DNA from: Crambe crambe
Lineage: Eukaryota > Porifera > Demospongiae > Poecilosclerida > Crambeidae
Assembly (NCBI GenBank): GCA_963924555.1
Contig: OZ004589.1
Coordinates: 1,178,001-1,242,000, forward strand
DNA length: 64,000 bases
Reading direction: 5' to 3'
Shown here in pieces: positions 53,402-64,000 of the stretch. The notes beneath the pieces are model-generated. The model saw only the letters and a list, made by a program, of their open reading frames with translations, did not search any database and had not been told where the DNA came from. The first letter of the stretch is position 1. Each line of letters opens with the position of its first letter. A program made the translations under genes and the position numbers.

Positions 53402-54866
53402 ATGGAAGACTTGGATCTGGCCGAGTTGGAGAAAGCTTACAGACAACAGGTTCACCTTTGCCAGGAAATGTTGGAAGAGAATTCCACAGGTGAGTGACTT
53501 CAAATGCAGCTAATTAAAACTTTGTCCTCATCCCCCCTACAACTCCCCCCCGTGCACTTTTTATTGCATCATTCACAGATGAGTTGATTGTCAAGTCTCA
53601 TATGACCTCTCGGGCTGCCGTATCACAGTTGCAAAGGTAAAAAAAAAAACAACAACAAACAAACTGCATGTACCCTTGACCACTTCCTTGAAGTACTAGC
53701 TCTGTCTTGAGAGTTAGAAAGAGCAGCAAGAATCCATCATAGGGCCACCACCGGTTTCATTCAATCAAGGAGAAAATGGTGGCAAGAATCTAGGGCTGCC
53801 ATAGAATTAAGGGCAATAGCTCAAGTTTCATGTGGTTGGTGTTTATTGCCGCCTGGTGTCTAGTGTATTTTTGACGTTGCCTGGTGTTGCATGTTCTTCA
53901 CTGAAACTGGTTGGAATTGAATATTGAATAGAATCTGTCACGTTGACACAACTGGACAACTGTAGACGAGAAAGACGATGACCTAATCCAACGCAAGCTG
54001 GTTGTGGTTGCATGGCAACTGCTGGATATCATTATGACTAACCAGCAAGCAACAATTATGTCATAGATGTCCACTAAATAATGTACCTACTCAATACTGT
54101 GTTCACTGGATCCATTGATCATTGAGTAGAGCTGATATAACTTTCTCAATTCTTAACCAAAATCAAAGAACCATGGGTGATCAGCTCTCTGCTGGTGTTT
54201 TAAATGTGAAATTTGGTCAAGAATTGAGAAACTTACAGAGCAGATGAATGATCTCAAGTGAACACAAAATCATAGACTTCAGGAATGCCATCAACAGGAA
54301 ATTTTCATGGGGCTCAATTTTTTTTGTGGATTTTGTGATTTTGAAAAAATTAATACACAAAACAAAGCAATTCATAATTCACAATTTATGATCTCCTTCC
54401 CTTCCCCCCCCCCCCCCCCGTTTGGTTTGTGGTGCAGGTACACAAGTGGTGAAGAGAGCAAAGACTCCAAGAAGAAGCTACTCAAATCCTCACTCAACAA
54501 CTACACACAGTCCATCCTAGACTCCACCTATTACAGAGAGTGCCAGCTAGCCGATGCTGAATTTTCAGACAAAGCAAGTCTCGAGAAAGTGGTGGGGATC
54601 AATCAAGCGTTATCCCTGCCGGTCCAGTTATGTGGCTCCCTGGAGAGAGTGGTCCTGCTGCTGGGGACCGAGCTTCTGGAGTGTTTGTATTGGAGGGTTG
54701 GGGGACTCTTCTACATGTACTGTCATTCCTTCTTTGAGAAGGAGGAAAGAAGGAAAAACATGGACAAGGAAATCTTCTTGAAAGTAAAAATGGATAATAT
54801 AGATGTAAAAAAATAATAAATCAATCTAGATTCCTTAGCTCTGATGACCCTTACCTAATATTTCTG

Positions 54867-54899
<33 letters not shown>

Positions 54900-56244
54900 A
54901 ATTATTCCTGTTTTCTTGTCCAATGATTACTGACTGTGAGACTTTCCGTCCATTTTTTCCTGTTCACTTGCACTCTTCAATCTTGTGTTTCAGTGCTGCT
55001 GTGCAGGTGTGGGGTACCTACGTCTGATGCTAAGTGCTCGGACGCCTCTAAGTAAAGACGAAGACTACATATCACATGACACAGACATGGTGCAGCTATT
55101 GGAGCAAGGTCAGGTCACATGACAGGGGCTGCAATGTTCATACAGTGGAACGTACCTCCCAAACAATGGGACCAAGCCTTTGTCCTTTGTCCTTTTTACA
55201 TATACTTATTTAGATTGTCCTTTGTTTTGAGGTTTATCCTCTTTCGGAGTGTCCTTTGTTCATATAACATTTTCCACATTGATGTGTTAATTTCGAGCAG
55301 GAATCTTCAGTGATATACACATGTTGGCTGTGATGTATGCCGGAGAACTCTGCTACTGGGTGTGGACAGTGTCCACTTCCCTTCCTCCAGCCCTGCCCCC
55401 TCAATTAACACCAGTCCCACCACCCTCTCAGCCGAAACCAGTTTCTTCACAGACTGAGAATGACACCAATTCTAAACATGAACAGCAATCAGTAGGAAAA
55501 GAAGTAGGCACAAAAGAGTCGACTAGAGAAGAAGGAAAAAGAACTGATGAAGTGTCGACCTCAACGTTGAAAGAAGCAGTAGCTGTTAAAGATGAAGAAG
55601 TGATGATAAATGAAGGCAAACCTGCTAGTGCAGTGGAGGAAGAGAAAGTAGCCAGCACCAGAGAATCAGTTATCACGATGGAAAAAGAAGAAGTATCAAA
55701 GCAACAAGCAACAATATCAAACATCCAAACAAAGTCCAATGGATCTTCCATACCTGATGCAACAAAAGCTACCATTACTTCTGCTCAGGACAAAGTTGCT
55801 GTTGCCTCAACCCAAGACAAAGACCAAGCGTCTGATGCACAGGTGATACGTTCCAGTGAACGCAAAGGTGATACATCACATCAAGCAGGTTCTGATGAAC
55901 ATGTATCCAGTTCTGATGGAAATGCATCAAAGAAAGTAATTTCTGGTGGATGTGGGTCAAAGGTGAAGGGTGAGGATGAGACGTGGGTCTCGGAGAAGTC
56001 CAGGACACACGTTGACTCAGCATGTCCAGATCTCTACAAGATCATGAGGTGGACTCGTGGAGAAGACTTCACTTCACGATGGATTGCAGAATTTGATGCC
56101 CTCAAGTATGGCCTTGAGATGCTCTCCAAGTACATCAATGCAGCACGAGGACCTCTCAAAGGACATGGCTGGAAGTATGCAAAAGCTGTGGAACTGGTTG
56201 TCAAGCTAAAAAGAGCAGCTGCTTCGGCAAGTACTGCAAAATAG
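53402..56244 (+). CDS. RIMOC1: RIMOC1 (C5orf51) homologue, RAB7A-interacting MON1-CCZ1 complex subunit
   Basis: Five exons (53402-53489, 53579-53636, 54438-54783, 54994-55108, 55301-56244) join in phase to 516 residues. Vertebrate RIMOC1 works with MON1-CCZ1, the exchange factor for RAB7A, on late endosomes and in mitophagy. The match rests on several blocks: YTQSILDSTYY, LLGTELLECLYWRVG followed by GLFYMYCHS, GIFSDIHMLAVMYAGELCYW and a C-terminal RGPLKGHGWKYAKA block. Vertebrate proteins are about 290 residues. Here about 220 extra Glu/Lys/Ser/Thr-rich residues, probably disordered, sit in the last exon between the CYW block and the C-terminal helix. The donor of exon 3 (AAA|gtaaaa) is weak but gives the right phase. 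The introns contain a family A palindrome, a C-run and a short (GA)n. Confidence 0.87.
53637..54437. other. Intron 2 of RIMOC1
   Basis: Non-coding. It carries a family A palindromic element at 54131-54246 and an 18-base C run at about 54402-54419 just upstream of the acceptor. Confidence 0.7.
54131..54246. mobile_element. MITE-like palindromic element, family A copy 3
   Basis: The best preserved copy. Left arm ctttctcaattcttaacc and right arm ggtcaagaattgagaaac are near-perfect inverted repeats around the shared gatcagctctctgctgg core. Confidence 0.8.
54870..54897. repeat. (GA)n microsatellite
   Basis: 28 bp of AG in RIMOC1 intron 3, purine on the sense strand. Confidence 0.95.
55138..55266. 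mobile_element. Dispersed intronic element, family B copy
   Basis: Begins acagtggaacgtacctccc and runs through tttgtcctttgtcc and ttgaggtttatcctcttt. It is shared with four other copies in this window. Confidence 0.6.
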
Positions 56245-56404: not shown

Positions 56405-59400
56405 ATGAATGGGAGGTCGAGGAGGGTTGGTTTGGTGTTCGTGTTTCTCCTGTTCCCCTTAGCTACATTGTTGCTGGTCCGCTGTGATGACAGCATCAAC
56501 AAGCAGCCTACAGGTCCGGACAGCGAATCAGCAGGACAACGTGGCAGTAATCCGGTCGTTAATCCAGCCCAGGGACATTGTACTAGAGATGGGGTGTGTT
56601 AGCTGTTGCCATAGTAGTTAGCAACTATTTATAGCTATCTCTGATAATATATTATCTGAAGGTTGCCTGTCTCATAGCTTGGGCCAGATCCAGGATTTTT
56701 AGATAGGTGGGATTGCAGGAGTGCACACACACTGGGCCATGGGGAAGGAGCAAGTTGCTTCACTTGCAGGCTACCACTTTTTGAGCATTTAGCTTTGCTT
56801 ATTGTATTATAAATATCACAAATAGCTAGCTAATCTTTTGCATAAAATTGAATCCAAGAATTGCATTTAATATGTGTATCATTTTATCTACAGGCTTAGC
56901 TTGGGAACAGGGGGGGGGGGGGGGGGGGGTTGCAACCCCTTCAACCCCTGGGCCCACCCTTGGATCCAGCTAAGATATGCACTTTCTTGCTTTGTATTAT
57001 TGTAGAGTTGTCATGAGGAAATTCAGTGCATATGGAGGTCAAAGGAGGGAGTATGGTATAGCCTGAAGGACTTTATAAACAAGCTGTTCCAAATTGCCCT
57101 TCCAAATCCCCGAGGGTCTGTGCTGAAGTTTCATCTCTGCCCTTTCCCGTCCTCTCAAATCTCATGCAAAAATGGTAGAAAGTCTCCAGCTTGCATAACT
57201 GTCCCTGGGGTCAGTCCCACCAGTACTGGAATGGAACCAAGAATTGAGCAACTGGAACCAAACATCCCCAGCATGGGAATCAGACTGGTATATGATGATG
57301 GAGATGTGTGTGAAGTGACAAAAATCCCTCGTAAAACAATAGTGAGACTTCCATGTAAGGAAGCAGTGGATTTCCCAATGAACACTTTCCAGCCGAGACA
57401 GGCTTGGGAAGGAACCAAGAAGGAGATATGTCATTATTTCGTAGAATTCCCACCCAGTCAATTTGGCTGTCCCAGTAAATTGGATGGACAGCTGGTGTCT
57501 GATTATGTTGCTACTGGTATCAATCACCATGGAAATAGCGAAAGTGGTACTGGTTCTTCACCTACACTTGTGCCCGAGATATCGGCTATTACTGGTTGCC
57601 ATGACTCTGTGCCTGCTAGAACTACAGAAGACTGTCATTTTGCAGGGAAGATAAAACTAATTCTGCACGGTTTGAACTTCCACAGCCTCTGCAGTGCTTC
57701 GGCAAATGTACCAGCTTCGTCGATCAGCTCTGTCTGTGAGAATAGCTTTAGTGACCAGTTTGCAGTGTACATTGGAGAAGTGGAATGTAGTCAAGTGGCC
57801 TTGGTTAGTCAGTATCAAATTAATTGCACAGTCGAGAAAGCAGCTGGAAAGGAGCAAGATGTTATCATAAAGAGGAAGTCCCTTTCATCAGTGAAATCTG
57901 AGAAGACCGCACAGGGGGAAATGGTGGCTATTTTAAAAGGAGCCGTTTCATTTAAAGAACGGATTAACTATCAAGAGAGATTCAGCAAGTTTGTTGAGAT
58001 GGGTGTAGGAGGATTGAAGAGAGAGATAAATGAGTTATACAGAAGGGCTTTTGCTTCAAGAGGTATATATGTTTAGCCAAGATAGACAGTTCTATTTAAA
58101 CATTTCATTCACGTATCCTATTTTAGGTACTTCCCCTGAACTCTTGGAGCAGTTAGGAATTGGACATGTGAAGGTATTCTCAAGCTAGTACATTGCACTA
58201 AGACATTGCCACCACATTCACATAGATAGCCACTCCAATGCTCTAGCTGCATGAAAGCTGAAACTAGGGATTATTGTCCCATTGACTGTAGGGTATTCTT
58301 CTATACGGCCCTCCAGGATCTGGCAAGACTTTACTGGCTCGAACCATTGGGAAGATTCTTGGATCAAAACAGGTACTTAGCAAGTGAGCTAGCTAGGTAT
58401 GTAAAGCATTATTTTACTGATTAAAATAGCTACTTCAATCAAAGGTGCTTGGGTCTAGTTAGAGACAATTTGACAGTGAGGATTATAACTGTTTTGAAAT
58501 GATCTGACAAATGTCAGACCAAGGGAAGAGTTGATCGGCTATATTATGATATGGCCTTTAAATAGATACATTCCTAAATGCAAGGGATGTAAGTATGCCA
58601 ATAATTATGATGTCAGACCAAAGCAAATCTTGACCAGACCTATTTGACCTTTTGACCCGGTAAATGGCCTATGGCAGACTGTTATAATCCTCACTGTTTG
58701 ATAGATTCCCTCTTCTTAGGTATCTATAATCAATGGGCCAGAAATCATCAGCAAGTACTTAGGAGAATCCGAAAAGAATCTGCGCTCTCATTTCAAAGAA
58801 GCTCACCAAAAGTGGAAGGAGTTTGGACCACTGAGCGATCTCTTTGTCATCATCATTGATGAAATAGATGCTGTGTGTAAGCCTCGGGGAAAAAGTGACC
58901 AATCATCTGCTGGTGTTGCATACGATGCTCTGGTCAATCAATTCTTGACTCTAATGGATGGTCTCAACGAGGTCCATAATACTCTCGTTATCGGTCTTAC
59001 AAACAGGCGAGAGTTACTTGACCCTGCTTTGCTAAGACCGGGAAGGTTCGAAGTTCAAATTGAGGTAGACCTGCCAGATGAGGAAGGAAGGAGAGAAATC
59101 TTTGAGATTCACACAAGAGAGATGACGAAAAATGGTCTGCTTGGGAAAGATGTGAACATCTTGGAATTGGCAGCCAACACAAGTCGTTTTAGTGGAGCTG
59201 AAATAGCTGGGATTGTCAGGGCTGCATCTTCCTATGCACTGGAGAGACACCAGCTCAAATCAGGTCAAATACAGTGAAACCTCCAAATAATGGACACATT
59301 CAGGACCCATCCTTTTGTCCTTTGTCAGAGAGATTGTTCTCTTTTAGAGTGTATAATATAAAGGTATTGTCCTTTGTTGAGAGGTTTGTCCTCTTTCAGA

Positions 59401-61230
59401 GGTCCTTTATTAAAGGTTCCACTTGTATCCATATATATATATATATAATTATATTTCTTAACATTAGCCTGGATATTTACATCATGATCATATCTAAAAC
59501 TTAATATATATATATATATATTTTTTTTTTTTTGCAGATTTAGTTCATGATTCAAGATCAGTAGTCGTTACTTTGTCGGACTTTTCTCGTGCTATTCAAG
59601 AAGTGAATCCGGCCTATACCCACTCTGAATCCCACGTCCTCTCCCATTTCCTCCCCCTGGGCTATCTGCCCTGTGGGGAACCACATGCCACAGTCATAGA
59701 GTCTGCCTTGGATATGGTTCACGTTCTCTTCTCGAGTTCAGCTGCTCGTTTTCAGTCCCTTCTTCTCTACGGACCTCGAGGGAGTGGGAAGACCACCATG
59801 GCTGCCCATCTGGCAATGATGGGGAAGTTCCCCTTCGTTAAGATCATCACAGCCGCATCTTTAGTGGGCGTCCATGATGCAGCAAAGATTGACATAATGC
59901 ACCAAACTTTCAGAGATGCCTACAAGTACATGACATGTTACAATCACATAATGCAGTGACATAGCCTTGTCTTTTGAAGGTTATAGAGTGTACAAAGACA
60001 CACGACTGTATTTTTAGATTGTCCTTTGTTGAGCAGTTTGTCTTCTTTAGGAGTCAAAGGTTCCACTCTATAGTGTATATACACTCAAACCAGATGAACC
60101 TTTGAACTTTACAACTCACCAAAGGTGTATCCCTGAGGAAGAACAATGCATTCACTGTTACAGTAACTGTTTTGACTATGATGTTAGGTGGGATTCTAAA
60201 CACATTAATTTATTAGGTCTCATCCTTTCCACTCAGAAGTACTATTACTACCATCCTTGTTTGGTGTATTAGATCTGAATCAGCTGTGATTATCCTGGAC
60301 GACCTCCACAGACTGGTTGAGTACATCCAAGTAGGACACCAGATCCAAGTCTCCCACTCCCTCCTTCACACCCTCTTCACCCTCCTCACCACCACACCCC
60401 CCTCTGGTGCCAAGCTGATGGTTGTGAGCACCATGACTCTTGCGGAACAAGGACAGTTGGAGGAACCACTCTCCCTTGGGCTTCCAGAGCTATTTACACA
60501 ACACATGTTTGTCCCTCTCCTAGGGCCTGAGGAAGCTAAAGTGTTTATAGCTGCTAGAAATATCCACAGGTTTGTGTTGACATGTTTTTTGCTGTGTAGT
60601 ACAATGGAACCTGAAACTTTAAAAACCTCTTTGGGGATGAAAATGTATTTTTTAAAGAATTAGCTGTCAGCCTACAGATCATTTGCTCAGCAATCACTGA
60701 CATACGACTTGATTTGTGACAAGGTCACCTTCCTCTGTTCTGTCCTGACAACATAGCCTTTGATAGGACATTGATTACTTTTGATCGGCAAATGTCAGAT
60801 ATCAGACAGCTATTTTCATCCCCACTCTTAACAAAGGATAATCTAAAAGTACCATTATAATTATATATAAAAATAACCTTCAAAAGAGGACAACCTCCCT
60901 ACAAAGGACAAAGGATGGGTCCCAAATATGTCCATCATTTGGAGGTTTCATTGTACTACTTCATGCAGAATGATTTGTTGTTGTTGTTGTTGTTGTTTGT
61001 TGCTATTGTTGTTGTTTATTAGAGACAGCTTTCCTTCTTGCAGATCTGATGGTGGTCGTTTTTCGCTCCCAGGAAACCTGGCCATCTCCATGGAACAGTT
61101 ATTGCACTCCATAGATTGTGCCTGTGTGACGAGTGAGGAATCATGTGACTTCAAACATTCTAGTCAGATAAGACAAGATCACCTCCTCAACTGCATCATG
61201 ACCCACATAAGGAAAACCCACCAACACTAA
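56405..61230 (+). CDS. Signal peptide + MRH + IPT/TIG domains fused to an NSF-like double AAA+ ATPase
   Basis: Eight exons (56405-56593, 57006-58062, 58127-58173, 58292-58372, 58720-59263, 59538-59925, 60273-60569, 61044-61230) join in phase to 929 residues. Residues 1-30 are a classic signal peptide (basic start, hydrophobic [15 protein letters not shown]). About 58-218 form a Cys-rich MRH (mannose-6-phosphate receptor homology) domain with [20 protein letters not shown] and ICHYFVEF. About 253-352 look like an IPT/TIG domain ([24 protein letters not shown]). From about 385 it is [24 protein letters not shown], then D1 with Walker A GPPGSGKT (437-444), Walker B IIIDEID (Asp505, Glu506) and TNR...RPGR. 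D2 follows with GPRGSGKT (718-725) and Walker B ILDD. NSF disassembles SNARE complexes in the cytosol. Here its roughly 200-residue N-domain is missing and replaced. No transmembrane helix is seen between the halves. The start ATG sits 160 bp after the RIMOC1 stop. Confidence 0.85.
56594..57005. other. Intron 1 of the NSF-like gene
   Basis: 412-bp intron with a gtgtgt donor and a ttattgtag acceptor. It contains a 20-base G run at 56910-56929 and no coding signal. Confidence 0.7.
59272..59427. mobile_element. Dispersed intronic element, family B copy, next to a donor site
   Basis: Begins cagtgaaacctccaaata eight bases after the last base of NSF-like exon 5 and ends aaggttccacttgta, giving short inverted ends (AGTGGAACCT type). 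It contains tttgtcctctttcagaggt. Confidence 0.7.
59953..60072. mobile_element. Dispersed intronic element, family B copy
   Basis: Begins gcagtgacatagcc, contains gtcctttgttgagcagttt and ends aaggttccactcta. It lies in NSF-like intron 6, 27 bases after the donor. Confidence 0.6.
60850..60957. mobile_element. Dispersed intronic element, family B copy (reverse orientation)
   Basis: Contains gaggacaacctccctacaaa and ends tttggaggtttcattgta, the reverse complement of the other copies. NSF-like intron 7. Confidence 0.6.
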
Positions 61231-61404
61231 AATGCAATACATTATTAGGCATTGCTATAATTATTTAAATTCAAGAACAAAATTAATATTATTGGCAGTA
61301 GGTAGGTAGCTAAATATACTTGTATTAACAGTTTTGCATAGTGCTAATACTATGACTACCTTAGCTATGGCTATTAGTAATAGTATGAGAGCTAGCTAAT
61401 TGGG

Positions 61405-64000
61405 TCATTGCATTGGTGTGACAAGCAGGTGAGCTCTCTTGGCCTTATGGGAACCTGCAATAGCTTTGGTGCGGAGCTTCTGTCCATCAGTAGTGCGTCT
61501 CGTCTCTTCTGAGGAGGTACTGGAGTGAGTCGACAGCTTAGGATTGACATACCTGTGATAATACATTACCGTGAATTGATATCGGAATTAGTTACAGGAG
61601 TCATGTGTGAATTGATATCAGAGCTCTCTATATAAGTTTTGAAAGCAAACTACACATCAGATCATTCAGATGTGACTACTGATGTAACATACATACACAT
61701 ACATACATACCTGGTGACGGTTGAGACTCCATCTACAAACTTGGTTTTGAACAAAACGTTGGCATTGTTGAACATGCCGTCTTTGAGGGACACCACGATG
61801 AACTGGGAGTGTCTGAAGTGAGAGCGTAGCATCTGCCCAATGTTTTGTGTGTGGGACAGATCAAGGGCGGCATCCACCTCGTCTAGGATGTAGACTGGAG
61901 CAGGCTTGAACAGGAGGAGGGCAAGAATCAGAGAAAGGGCTACAAGGGACCTACGTACAATTTTAGCAAAGTGAAAATTTAGAGTATACATAAGGTTAGA
62001 TATGACAGGGCCAAAAAAGTGCTGCTTCTATGTGGAGTAAGTGGATTGGATTTGGTGGTACTATACCTTTGACCTCCTGAGAGTTCCTGCAAGGATTCCT
62101 TCCAGACTCCCCCAAATGCCACTTTGACCTCCAGCCCATCCAGAATCCCCATTCCCTCAGGGGGGGACAGTCGAGCGTCAGTTCCAGGAAGCAGAGTTGC
62201 GAATATGGAACCAAAATCCTGAAAATGTGAAATAAATTTGGATTTCGAACAGCATCTTTGAGGTGTTCTAACAGCTGCTTGAACTTTCGGGAGTGAAGAT
62301 AATTTTTGTATAAGCATTCAATAGAGTGCCAGTACCTTATTGACTCTTTCATAAGCACCCTCCAATGCTTCGTTTTTCTTTTGGTCCAGTTCCTCAATGA
62401 GTTCAGCAATTTTAGTCTTATCGTTCTCCACTATGTTCTTCTTCTTTAACAGGTCATTGTACTACAAGGAAGCATGTGAATAATGGCTGGTCTAACTGCA
62501 GTTTTTCCTGGACATATGTCCTGTTTCAGACTGTTATAAATACCCCTGTTAACTGACCTTTTCTTCAGCTTTACCAAGCATATTCATAGCACGCATGTTC
62601 ACGCTTTTACTTAGCTTATCCTAAAAAAGCAGAGGAGGAGCAATAAAGGGTGTAAAAGTATTGATGGTTAGAAACTAGACTGCACCTTTTGTTCCTGCAT
62701 CTTGGCCAATCTCCTGTTGACTTCAGTGATGTTATTAGCTTTAAAGTCATAGGTAGAATTGGGTTGGCCAAAGAACTGCCTGTCAGTGGCTATCCATTCA
62801 TATTTGCCAAGCATAGACTCAACCTATCAAACACAAACAAACAATAAAACAACAACAACAACAAAAGTGTATAAGTGTGAGAAGCAACATTTGATATCAG
62901 ATCAACAGCCATGCTAAGGAAAGTTCTGTATTGCACAACTCTTTTCATACCCTATGAGCAGCATCTCGACTGTCTTTCTGGAGCTTTACAATCCTATGTT
63001 CTAGCTCTTTGATCTCGAGAGAGTAGTCCACTTTCTCTTTCTCATGCTTTCGTCGCAGCTGCTCAAATTTCTGCAGCTCCTTGTTCCTCTCACGAAAGAT
63101 TGCTTTCTGTTCATCCAGTTCCCTCTTTGCATCCTTCAGCCCATCCTAATTAAAGTTATAACAACAGGGTTCTCCTCAATCATTATAACAGTTAATATAA
63201 CATTCATTCTGTGAGTCTGTCCATTTTCATCATTACCTTTGCCTCTTCATCAGCCTTAGCGAGTTCTTCCAGTTTCTCAGCTCTTTTAGCAATAATCTCA
63301 GCACAAGATACAAGCTATACACACAGTACAAATTAGATGATATGTATTGATGCATGTTATAGCTTACCTGTTTCTGCTGAACTTCCAGGGCCTTTTCTAG
63401 CTCTTCCACTTCCAGTTGAAGGGTTTGCATGGATTGCTGCTGCATCTTGGCCTCCCCAACGATCCCTTCTGCCTCTTTCCTGGTTCTCAACACCTCTTCT
63501 TCGGCTGCTTTCAGCTCACGCTCATGGTGGCTCTTGGAATCCTAAAGTTAAAAATAGAGAATAAAGTGTCTGTTTCAGACCAGATGATCAAGTATCTGAT
63601 ATTATATATTATTTACCTTCATGTTATGCTGGACCTCTTCAAGCTGGGCTTTGGCAGCCTTTTCTGCATCCTGGGCCTTCTTGAGCACTTCCTTTTGCTC
63701 ACCTATCAAAGAAGTTGCCAGTTTTGTGGGTAGATGGTGACTTGCCAGTATCTGAACTCACTTATGGTGTCCCTGAGTTTCTGGAGTTGTGTGAGCTGCT
63801 CGTGGTGAGTACTTTGTTCCATACGAGTCATTATCACCTGTGCTTCATGACCCTTTCCATCCCTCTGATCTTTCAGCTTCCGATATCTAGAGAACAGAAA
63901 AAAATAATCATAATAAGAACATTCGTTAGTCTTCTACCGTTACATACTTGGATGCTACGGACTGTATTTTCTCTAGTTCCTGTTCCACTCCCTTTAGTGC
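61405..64000 (-). CDS. SMC2: SMC2 condensin ATPase subunit, C-terminal part (5' end beyond window)
   Basis: Twelve exons are visible (64000-63948, 63886-63762, 63702-63617, 63541-63368, 63314-63237, 63145-62951, 62823-62686, 62620-62558, 62461-62336, 62218-62067, 61950-61711, 61552-61405). They join in phase to the last 525 residues. SMC2 pairs with SMC4 in condensin and drives chromosome compaction by ATP-dependent loop extrusion. The first part is coiled coil (heptad-like Glu/Lys/Leu). SMC2-specific blocks follow: [18 protein letters not shown] and IVENDKTKI. The head domain has [13 protein letters not shown], the ABC signature ELSGGQRSL, Walker [14 protein letters not shown] with its D-loop, and a H-loop-type [14 protein letters not shown]. 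The tail beyond VDGVSTVTR is Lys/Arg/Ser/Thr-rich and ends at a TGA. The gene converges on the NSF-like gene with 174 bp between stop codons. Confidence 0.97.

What the first reader, a model, noticed from the sequence alone, without database searches (positions are those of the whole stretch)
56405..61230. NSF-type AAA+ ATPase fused to a signal peptide, an MRH lectin-like domain and an IPT/TIG domain
Seen: one eight-exon, phase-consistent model encodes a hydrophobic N-terminal leader, a Cys-rich MRH-type block, an IPT-like block and then the full NSF D1-D2 tandem with both Walker A motifs. Known: NSF is a cytosolic SNARE disassembly machine with its own N-domain, and MRH domains (OS-9, erlectin, glucosidase II beta, M6P receptors) bind mannose-type glycans in the lumen. 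I know of no described protein joining these parts. Inference: this could be a glycan-guided lumenal or secreted unfoldase, a role torsins (another lumenal AAA+ group) show is possible in principle, or a new receptor-type ATPase.
Basis: partly seen in the sequence, partly recalled or inferred. Interest (0 to 1): 0.92.

Follow-up and report, generated by a model that had tools for sequence, protein, structure and literature searches.

The report
NSF-like ATPase with predicted secretory leader
An animal genome (probably a sponge) carries, beside its normal NSF, a strongly diverged NSF-type protein-disassembly motor that looks built for the inside of the secretory pathway, with a lectin-like and an immunoglobulin-like module where NSF has its adaptor domain; if real, it would be an unusual kind of motor for that compartment.

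Summary
The eight-exon model holds: 929 codons, no internal stop, all GT-AG, phases consistent. The motor is NSF-class: best solved-structure hits are NSF and Sec18 (E 1e-117 to 3e-117; next class, VCP-like, 5e-93), with intact D1 Walker A/B, pore loop, RPGR finger and D2 P-loop. NSF's own N-domain is not detected; instead there are a hydrophobic leader (the only TM-like segment), an 8-Cys MRH-like block and a TIG domain (Pfam 21.8 bits, cut-off 20.9). MRH support is moderate: no Pfam hit, but 0 of 2000 Cys-preserving shuffles score as high on a CI-MPR profile. MRH, TIG and the start of D1 lie in one open exon. The genome also has a canonical NSF; this second gene is 42% identical to it and falls outside animal NSF plus Sec18 in a five-sequence tree. 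Glycan binding is doubtful: of four sugar-contact positions, Arg and Tyr are kept, Gln and Glu are not. Best reading: an extracytosolic NSF-type unfoldase whose MRH-TIG crown selects clients. Not shown: transcript, localisation, orthologues (no eukaryotic collection was searchable), fold (predictor busy in 23 of 23 tries).

The parts
56405..61230 (+). Whole gene model, eight exons, 929 aa
   Evidence: Open frame, GT-AG, phases; NSF homology across exons 2-7
56405..56593 (+). Exon 1: start, hydrophobic leader (residues 8-26), polar linker
   Evidence: Hydropathy and splice phase; no SignalP was available
57027..57470 (+). MRH-like domain, residues 71-218, eight cysteines
   Evidence: CI-MPR profile, shuffles, alignment; hhalign
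57570..57881 (+). IPT/TIG domain, about residues 252-355 (Pfam stretch 276-355)
   Evidence: PF01833, 21.8 bits, cut-off 20.9
57990..59263 (+). NSF D1 ATPase domain, from residue 392, over exons 2-5; Walker A 437-444, pore loop 470-475, Walker B 502-508, RPGR 564-567
59660..60546 (+). NSF D2 domain, about residues 681-860, exons 6-7; P-loop 718-725, Asp-Asp Walker B 775-780
61044..61230 (+). Exon 8: C-terminal tail with four cysteines (893, 895, 902, 918), no KDEL-like end
   Evidence: translation; not covered by the PDB alignment

Best explanation
One gene encodes an NSF-class double-ring AAA+ ATPase sent into the secretory pathway. Shown by sequence: leader, MRH-like and TIG modules in one continuous model with a D1 whose catalytic motifs are intact and a D2 with an intact P-loop, no detectable NSF N-domain, no second TM-like segment, and a separate canonical NSF gene. 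Inferred: the leader takes the whole protein to the lumen or outside (cleaved, or kept as a type II anchor; either way the rings face the lumen); it forms a hexamer through D2; D1 hydrolyses ATP and pulls clients through its conserved aromatic pore loop; the MRH-TIG crown sits where NSF's SNAP-binding N-domain sits and selects lumenal or surface partners, by protein contact and perhaps by glycan.
For: Continuous eight-exon frame; NSF-class D1-D2 with Walker, pore-loop and RPGR motifs kept at 42-43% identity to NSF and Sec18; canonical NSF elsewhere, so this gene is free to differ; front half reads as MRH-like plus TIG, kinds usual in extracytosolic proteins (usual place recalled); leader is the only strong hydrophobic stretch; MRH, TIG and start of D1 in one exon.
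Against: No transcript, no localisation, no orthologue, no fold model. MRH and TIG are weak by standard models: genome-wide searches with PF07915, PF00878 and PF01833 do not list this place. Sugar site half lost. No ER-retention motif. Cysteine content of the AAA core (2) is no lower than that of cytosolic Sec18 (2), so it gives no sign of a lumenal life.
Confidence: 0.5

Rival explanations
1. Two products from one locus: a secreted MRH-TIG protein (intron 2 retained; the frame ends ...RGIYV stop just after the donor) and a cytosolic NSF-like ATPase without N-domain, started from an internal Met such as 369 or 395.
For: Exon 2's open frame ends at 58076, four codons past the donor; Met369 and Met395 lie just before D1.
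Against: MRH, TIG and D1 start share one exon and frame; a cytosolic product would need initiation inside that exon.
Confidence: 0.17
2. A secreted or membrane-anchored receptor or scaffold in which the NSF rings serve binding or assembly, not unfolding.
For: MRH-like and TIG modules; no KDEL-like end; the 18-19 residue hydrophobic stretch could be an anchor.
Against: DEID and RPGR, needed for hydrolysis, are kept.
Confidence: 0.13
3. A local, young or decaying chimera, or an assembly or modelling artefact, without a conserved role.
For: Seen in one genome only; no second copy of exon 2 in it; long branch.
Against: 929 open codons, seven proper introns and all catalytic motifs kept at 42-43% identity; none of six introns in the NSF part is shared with canonical NSF, against a recent genomic copy; contig of 7.6 Mb.
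Confidence: 0.12

Closest known systems
NSF / Sec18 (vesicle-fusing ATPase)
   Same: D1-D2 tandem, Walker motifs, pore loop, arginine finger, best match by far
   Different: NSF N-domain not detected; leader, MRH-like and TIG modules instead; 42-43% identity while this genome's canonical NSF is 64% identical to mammalian NSF
Torsins
   Same: Predicted signal sequence and extracytosolic AAA+ domain
   Different: Other AAA+ class, two rings; has the arginine finger that torsins lack according to PMC7140721 (passages)
MRH-domain proteins (CI-MPR, OS-9, erlectin, glucosidase II beta)
   Same: Eight-cysteine layout of CI-MPR repeats; Arg and Tyr of the sugar site
   Different: One diverged MRH fused to a motor; Gln and Glu positions not kept

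Membership tests
NSF | D1-D2 AAA tandem closest to NSF/Sec18 | tested here: met
   E 1.2e-117 (NSF) and 3.2e-117 (Sec18) against 5.1e-93 for the next class
NSF | Catalytic D1 (Walker A, DEID, RPGR) and D2 P-loop | tested here: met
   motif positions and alignment
NSF | SNAP-binding N-domain (CDC48_N / CDC48_2 models) | tested here: not met
   no match at E<=10 in pieces 1-248, 244-431, 340-431; this genome's canonical NSF matches both models, weakly and below Pfam's cut-offs
NSF | SNARE disassembly with alpha-SNAP in the cytosol | not testable with these tools
   needs biochemistry
MRH domain | Eight-cysteine MRH sequence pattern | tested here: met
   all eight cysteines align; 0 of 2000 shuffles reach 11.3 bits; but no Pfam hit and only 48% in hhalign
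MRH domain | Sugar-contact residues Gln, Arg, Glu, Tyr | tested here: inconclusive
   Arg172 and Tyr207 kept, Ile127 and Lys202 at the Gln and Glu places; positions other than Arg391 recalled, Arg391 seen in PMC7481795 passages
IPT/TIG domain | Match over Pfam cut-off | tested here: met
   21.8 vs 20.9 bits; not listed in the genome-wide search
Torsin | Torsin sequence class, missing arginine finger | tested here: not met
   NSF class, RPGR present, Torsin model has no hit in the genome at E<=0.001

The most novel reading that the evidence does not exclude
A second, independent class of extracytosolic AAA+ motor: an old NSF paralogue, perhaps splitting before animals and fungi, that crossed the membrane by gaining a leader and an MRH-TIG client-recognition crown, and that remodels glycoprotein complexes in the lumen or at the cell surface of an early-branching animal.
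Probability: 0.25. Interest if true: 0.93.

Novelty: new variant of a known kind. Interest (0 to 1): 0.7.

Why it matters
PMC7140721 (passages) calls torsins the only AAA+ proteins known in the ER lumen and perinuclear space, and says that they lack the arginine finger. A lumenal NSF-type double ring with complete catalytic motifs would show that a classical unfoldase can work on the secretory side, and would be a testable case of a SNARE-disassembly machine re-aimed by swapping its adaptor domain.

Tried and rejected
Structure prediction of exon 2 (MRH-like + TIG): 23 attempts, all answered 'machine is busy'; no fold evidence.

Orthologue hunt: exon 2 in viral contigs and genome contigs, none; exon 5 in viral contigs none, in genome contigs eight haloarchaeal loci, taken as Cdc48-type by recall and not examined. 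These are viral and prokaryotic collections and say nothing about animals.

Cysteine depletion of the AAA core as a sign of lumenal life: rejected; window 2, canonical NSF of the genome 7, mammalian NSF 6, Sec18 2. Sequons in the core: 1, 2, 1, 3, uninformative. A possible second MRH+TIG gene on C19: the MRH there is glucosidase II beta and the TIG matches lie some 11 kb away in what looks like another gene (by eye).

Torsins in this genome: PF06309 no hit at E<=0.001 (its controls ring in 3 of 14, 0 over cut-off); PF21376 no hit, but nothing rang in its controls either. Absence is not shown.

Literature: searches gave no description of an MRH-TIG-AAA protein or of such an NSF paralogue among the papers listed (listings and abstract starts seen, lists capped; one search showed 20 of 240). 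Passages were read in PMC7140721 and PMC7481795. A search for the species by assembly size found nothing fitting.

Full report
What is there. The model was rebuilt exon by exon: eight exons, 929 codons, no stop, all introns GT-AG. The ATG at 56405 has an in-frame stop two codons upstream. Exon 2 (57006-58062) cannot be read further upstream in its frame, since a stop lies at its acceptor, and its first Met is residue 139, inside the MRH-like block; so an upstream exon is needed, and exon 1 fits in phase and gives MNGRSRR followed by a hydrophobic stretch. The next gene upstream is RIMC1-like and ends at 56244 (PF17716).

The motor. The solved-structure search ranks vesicle-fusing ATPase first (E 1.2e-117), with Sec18 at 3.2e-117, ahead of VCP-like proteins (5.1e-93 and weaker). 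D1 keeps [21 protein letters not shown] and RPGR; D2 keeps GPRGSGKT and an Asp-Asp Walker B. Identity is 200/474 to the genome's canonical NSF, 201/472 to mammalian NSF and 204/470 to Sec18, whereas the genome's canonical NSF is 318/495 identical to mammalian NSF. In a five-sequence tree rooted on p97 D1 the window protein lies outside animal NSF plus Sec18 (support 81). With five sequences, a long branch and an outgroup that covers D1 only, this may be an old split or fast evolution. None of the six introns in its NSF part sits where the canonical gene has one of its nine in the compared stretch; the nearest pair is about two residues apart, and the last of the six falls where the alignment is poor (compared by eye). 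That speaks against a recent genomic duplication.

The front. The piece 244-431 passes Pfam's TIG cut-off narrowly; residues 1-248 hit no Pfam family at E<=10. Genome-wide searches with TIG, PRKCSH and CIMR models do not list this place. Eight CI-MPR repeats, four from this genome and four from solved structures (called mammalian by recall, 6P8I named human CI-MPR), were made into a profile; I chose these eight from more repeats visible in those outputs. The MRH-like block scores 11.3 bits; of 2000 shuffles that keep the cysteine places, 1845 were scored and the best reached 8.5. The full-length protein scores 10.0 bits, with only the second half of the domain aligned (6.5 bits). hhalign gives 48% probability, against 92.5% for this genome's glucosidase II beta MRH and 1.9% for the TIG segment. 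I accept MRH at moderate strength. The NSF N-domain models match no piece of the front at E<=10, while the genome's canonical NSF matches them weakly, below Pfam's cut-offs.

One gene or two. The TIG, the linker and the first 24 residues of the D1 region are encoded in one open exon. Separation into two genes would need initiation inside that exon. Intron 2 retention would end the protein four codons past the donor, so a secreted MRH-TIG isoform remains possible. Exon 2 has no second copy in the genome.

How it may work. With one strong hydrophobic segment at the N-terminus and none elsewhere, the protein should face the lumen or the outside whether the leader is cut or kept (inference; positive-inside rule recalled). 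D1-D2 should form a hexamer that threads clients (known for NSF, recalled); the MRH-TIG crown would replace the SNAP adaptor. Of the CI-MPR sugar-site positions, Arg and Tyr are kept, Gln and Glu are not, so protein recognition is at least as likely as glycan recognition.

What is known. PMC7140721 (passages) calls torsins the only AAA+ proteins known in the ER lumen and perinuclear space and says they lack the arginine finger. The searches named in Tried and rejected found no such NSF variant in the held library. A database annotation of this architecture in other animals could exist unseen, because no eukaryotic protein or genome collection was searchable here.

Limits. One genome, no RNA, no fold, species unverified.

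Noticed in passing
54262-56244, + strand: RIMC1-like gene (PF17716, RAB7A-interacting MON1-CCZ1 subunit) whose last exon holds a long stretch rich in Ser, Thr, Glu and Lys between two parts that look conserved.
   Followed up: partly
61400-64000, - strand: The convergent gene downstream looks like an SMC-type coiled-coil ATPase by eye; no search was made.
   Followed up: no
L052, L053, L054 (G000:C8 near 8.24 and 8.17 Mb, G000:C6 near 2.72 Mb): TIG matches cluster on contig C8; the three loci looked at encode PSI-TIG stretches that look plexin-like by eye, suggesting a large expanded family.
   Followed up: partly
whole genome G000: No torsin match with PF06309 or PF21376. If torsins were truly missing, this NSF-like protein might be the only AAA+ in the lumen; exon-by-exon search and weak or silent controls leave it open.
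   Followed up: partly
window exon 8, 61044-61230: Four cysteines within 26 residues of the C-terminal tail (893, 895, 902, 918), absent from the NSF tail by recall; could be disulphide-bonded if the tail is lumenal.
   Followed up: no
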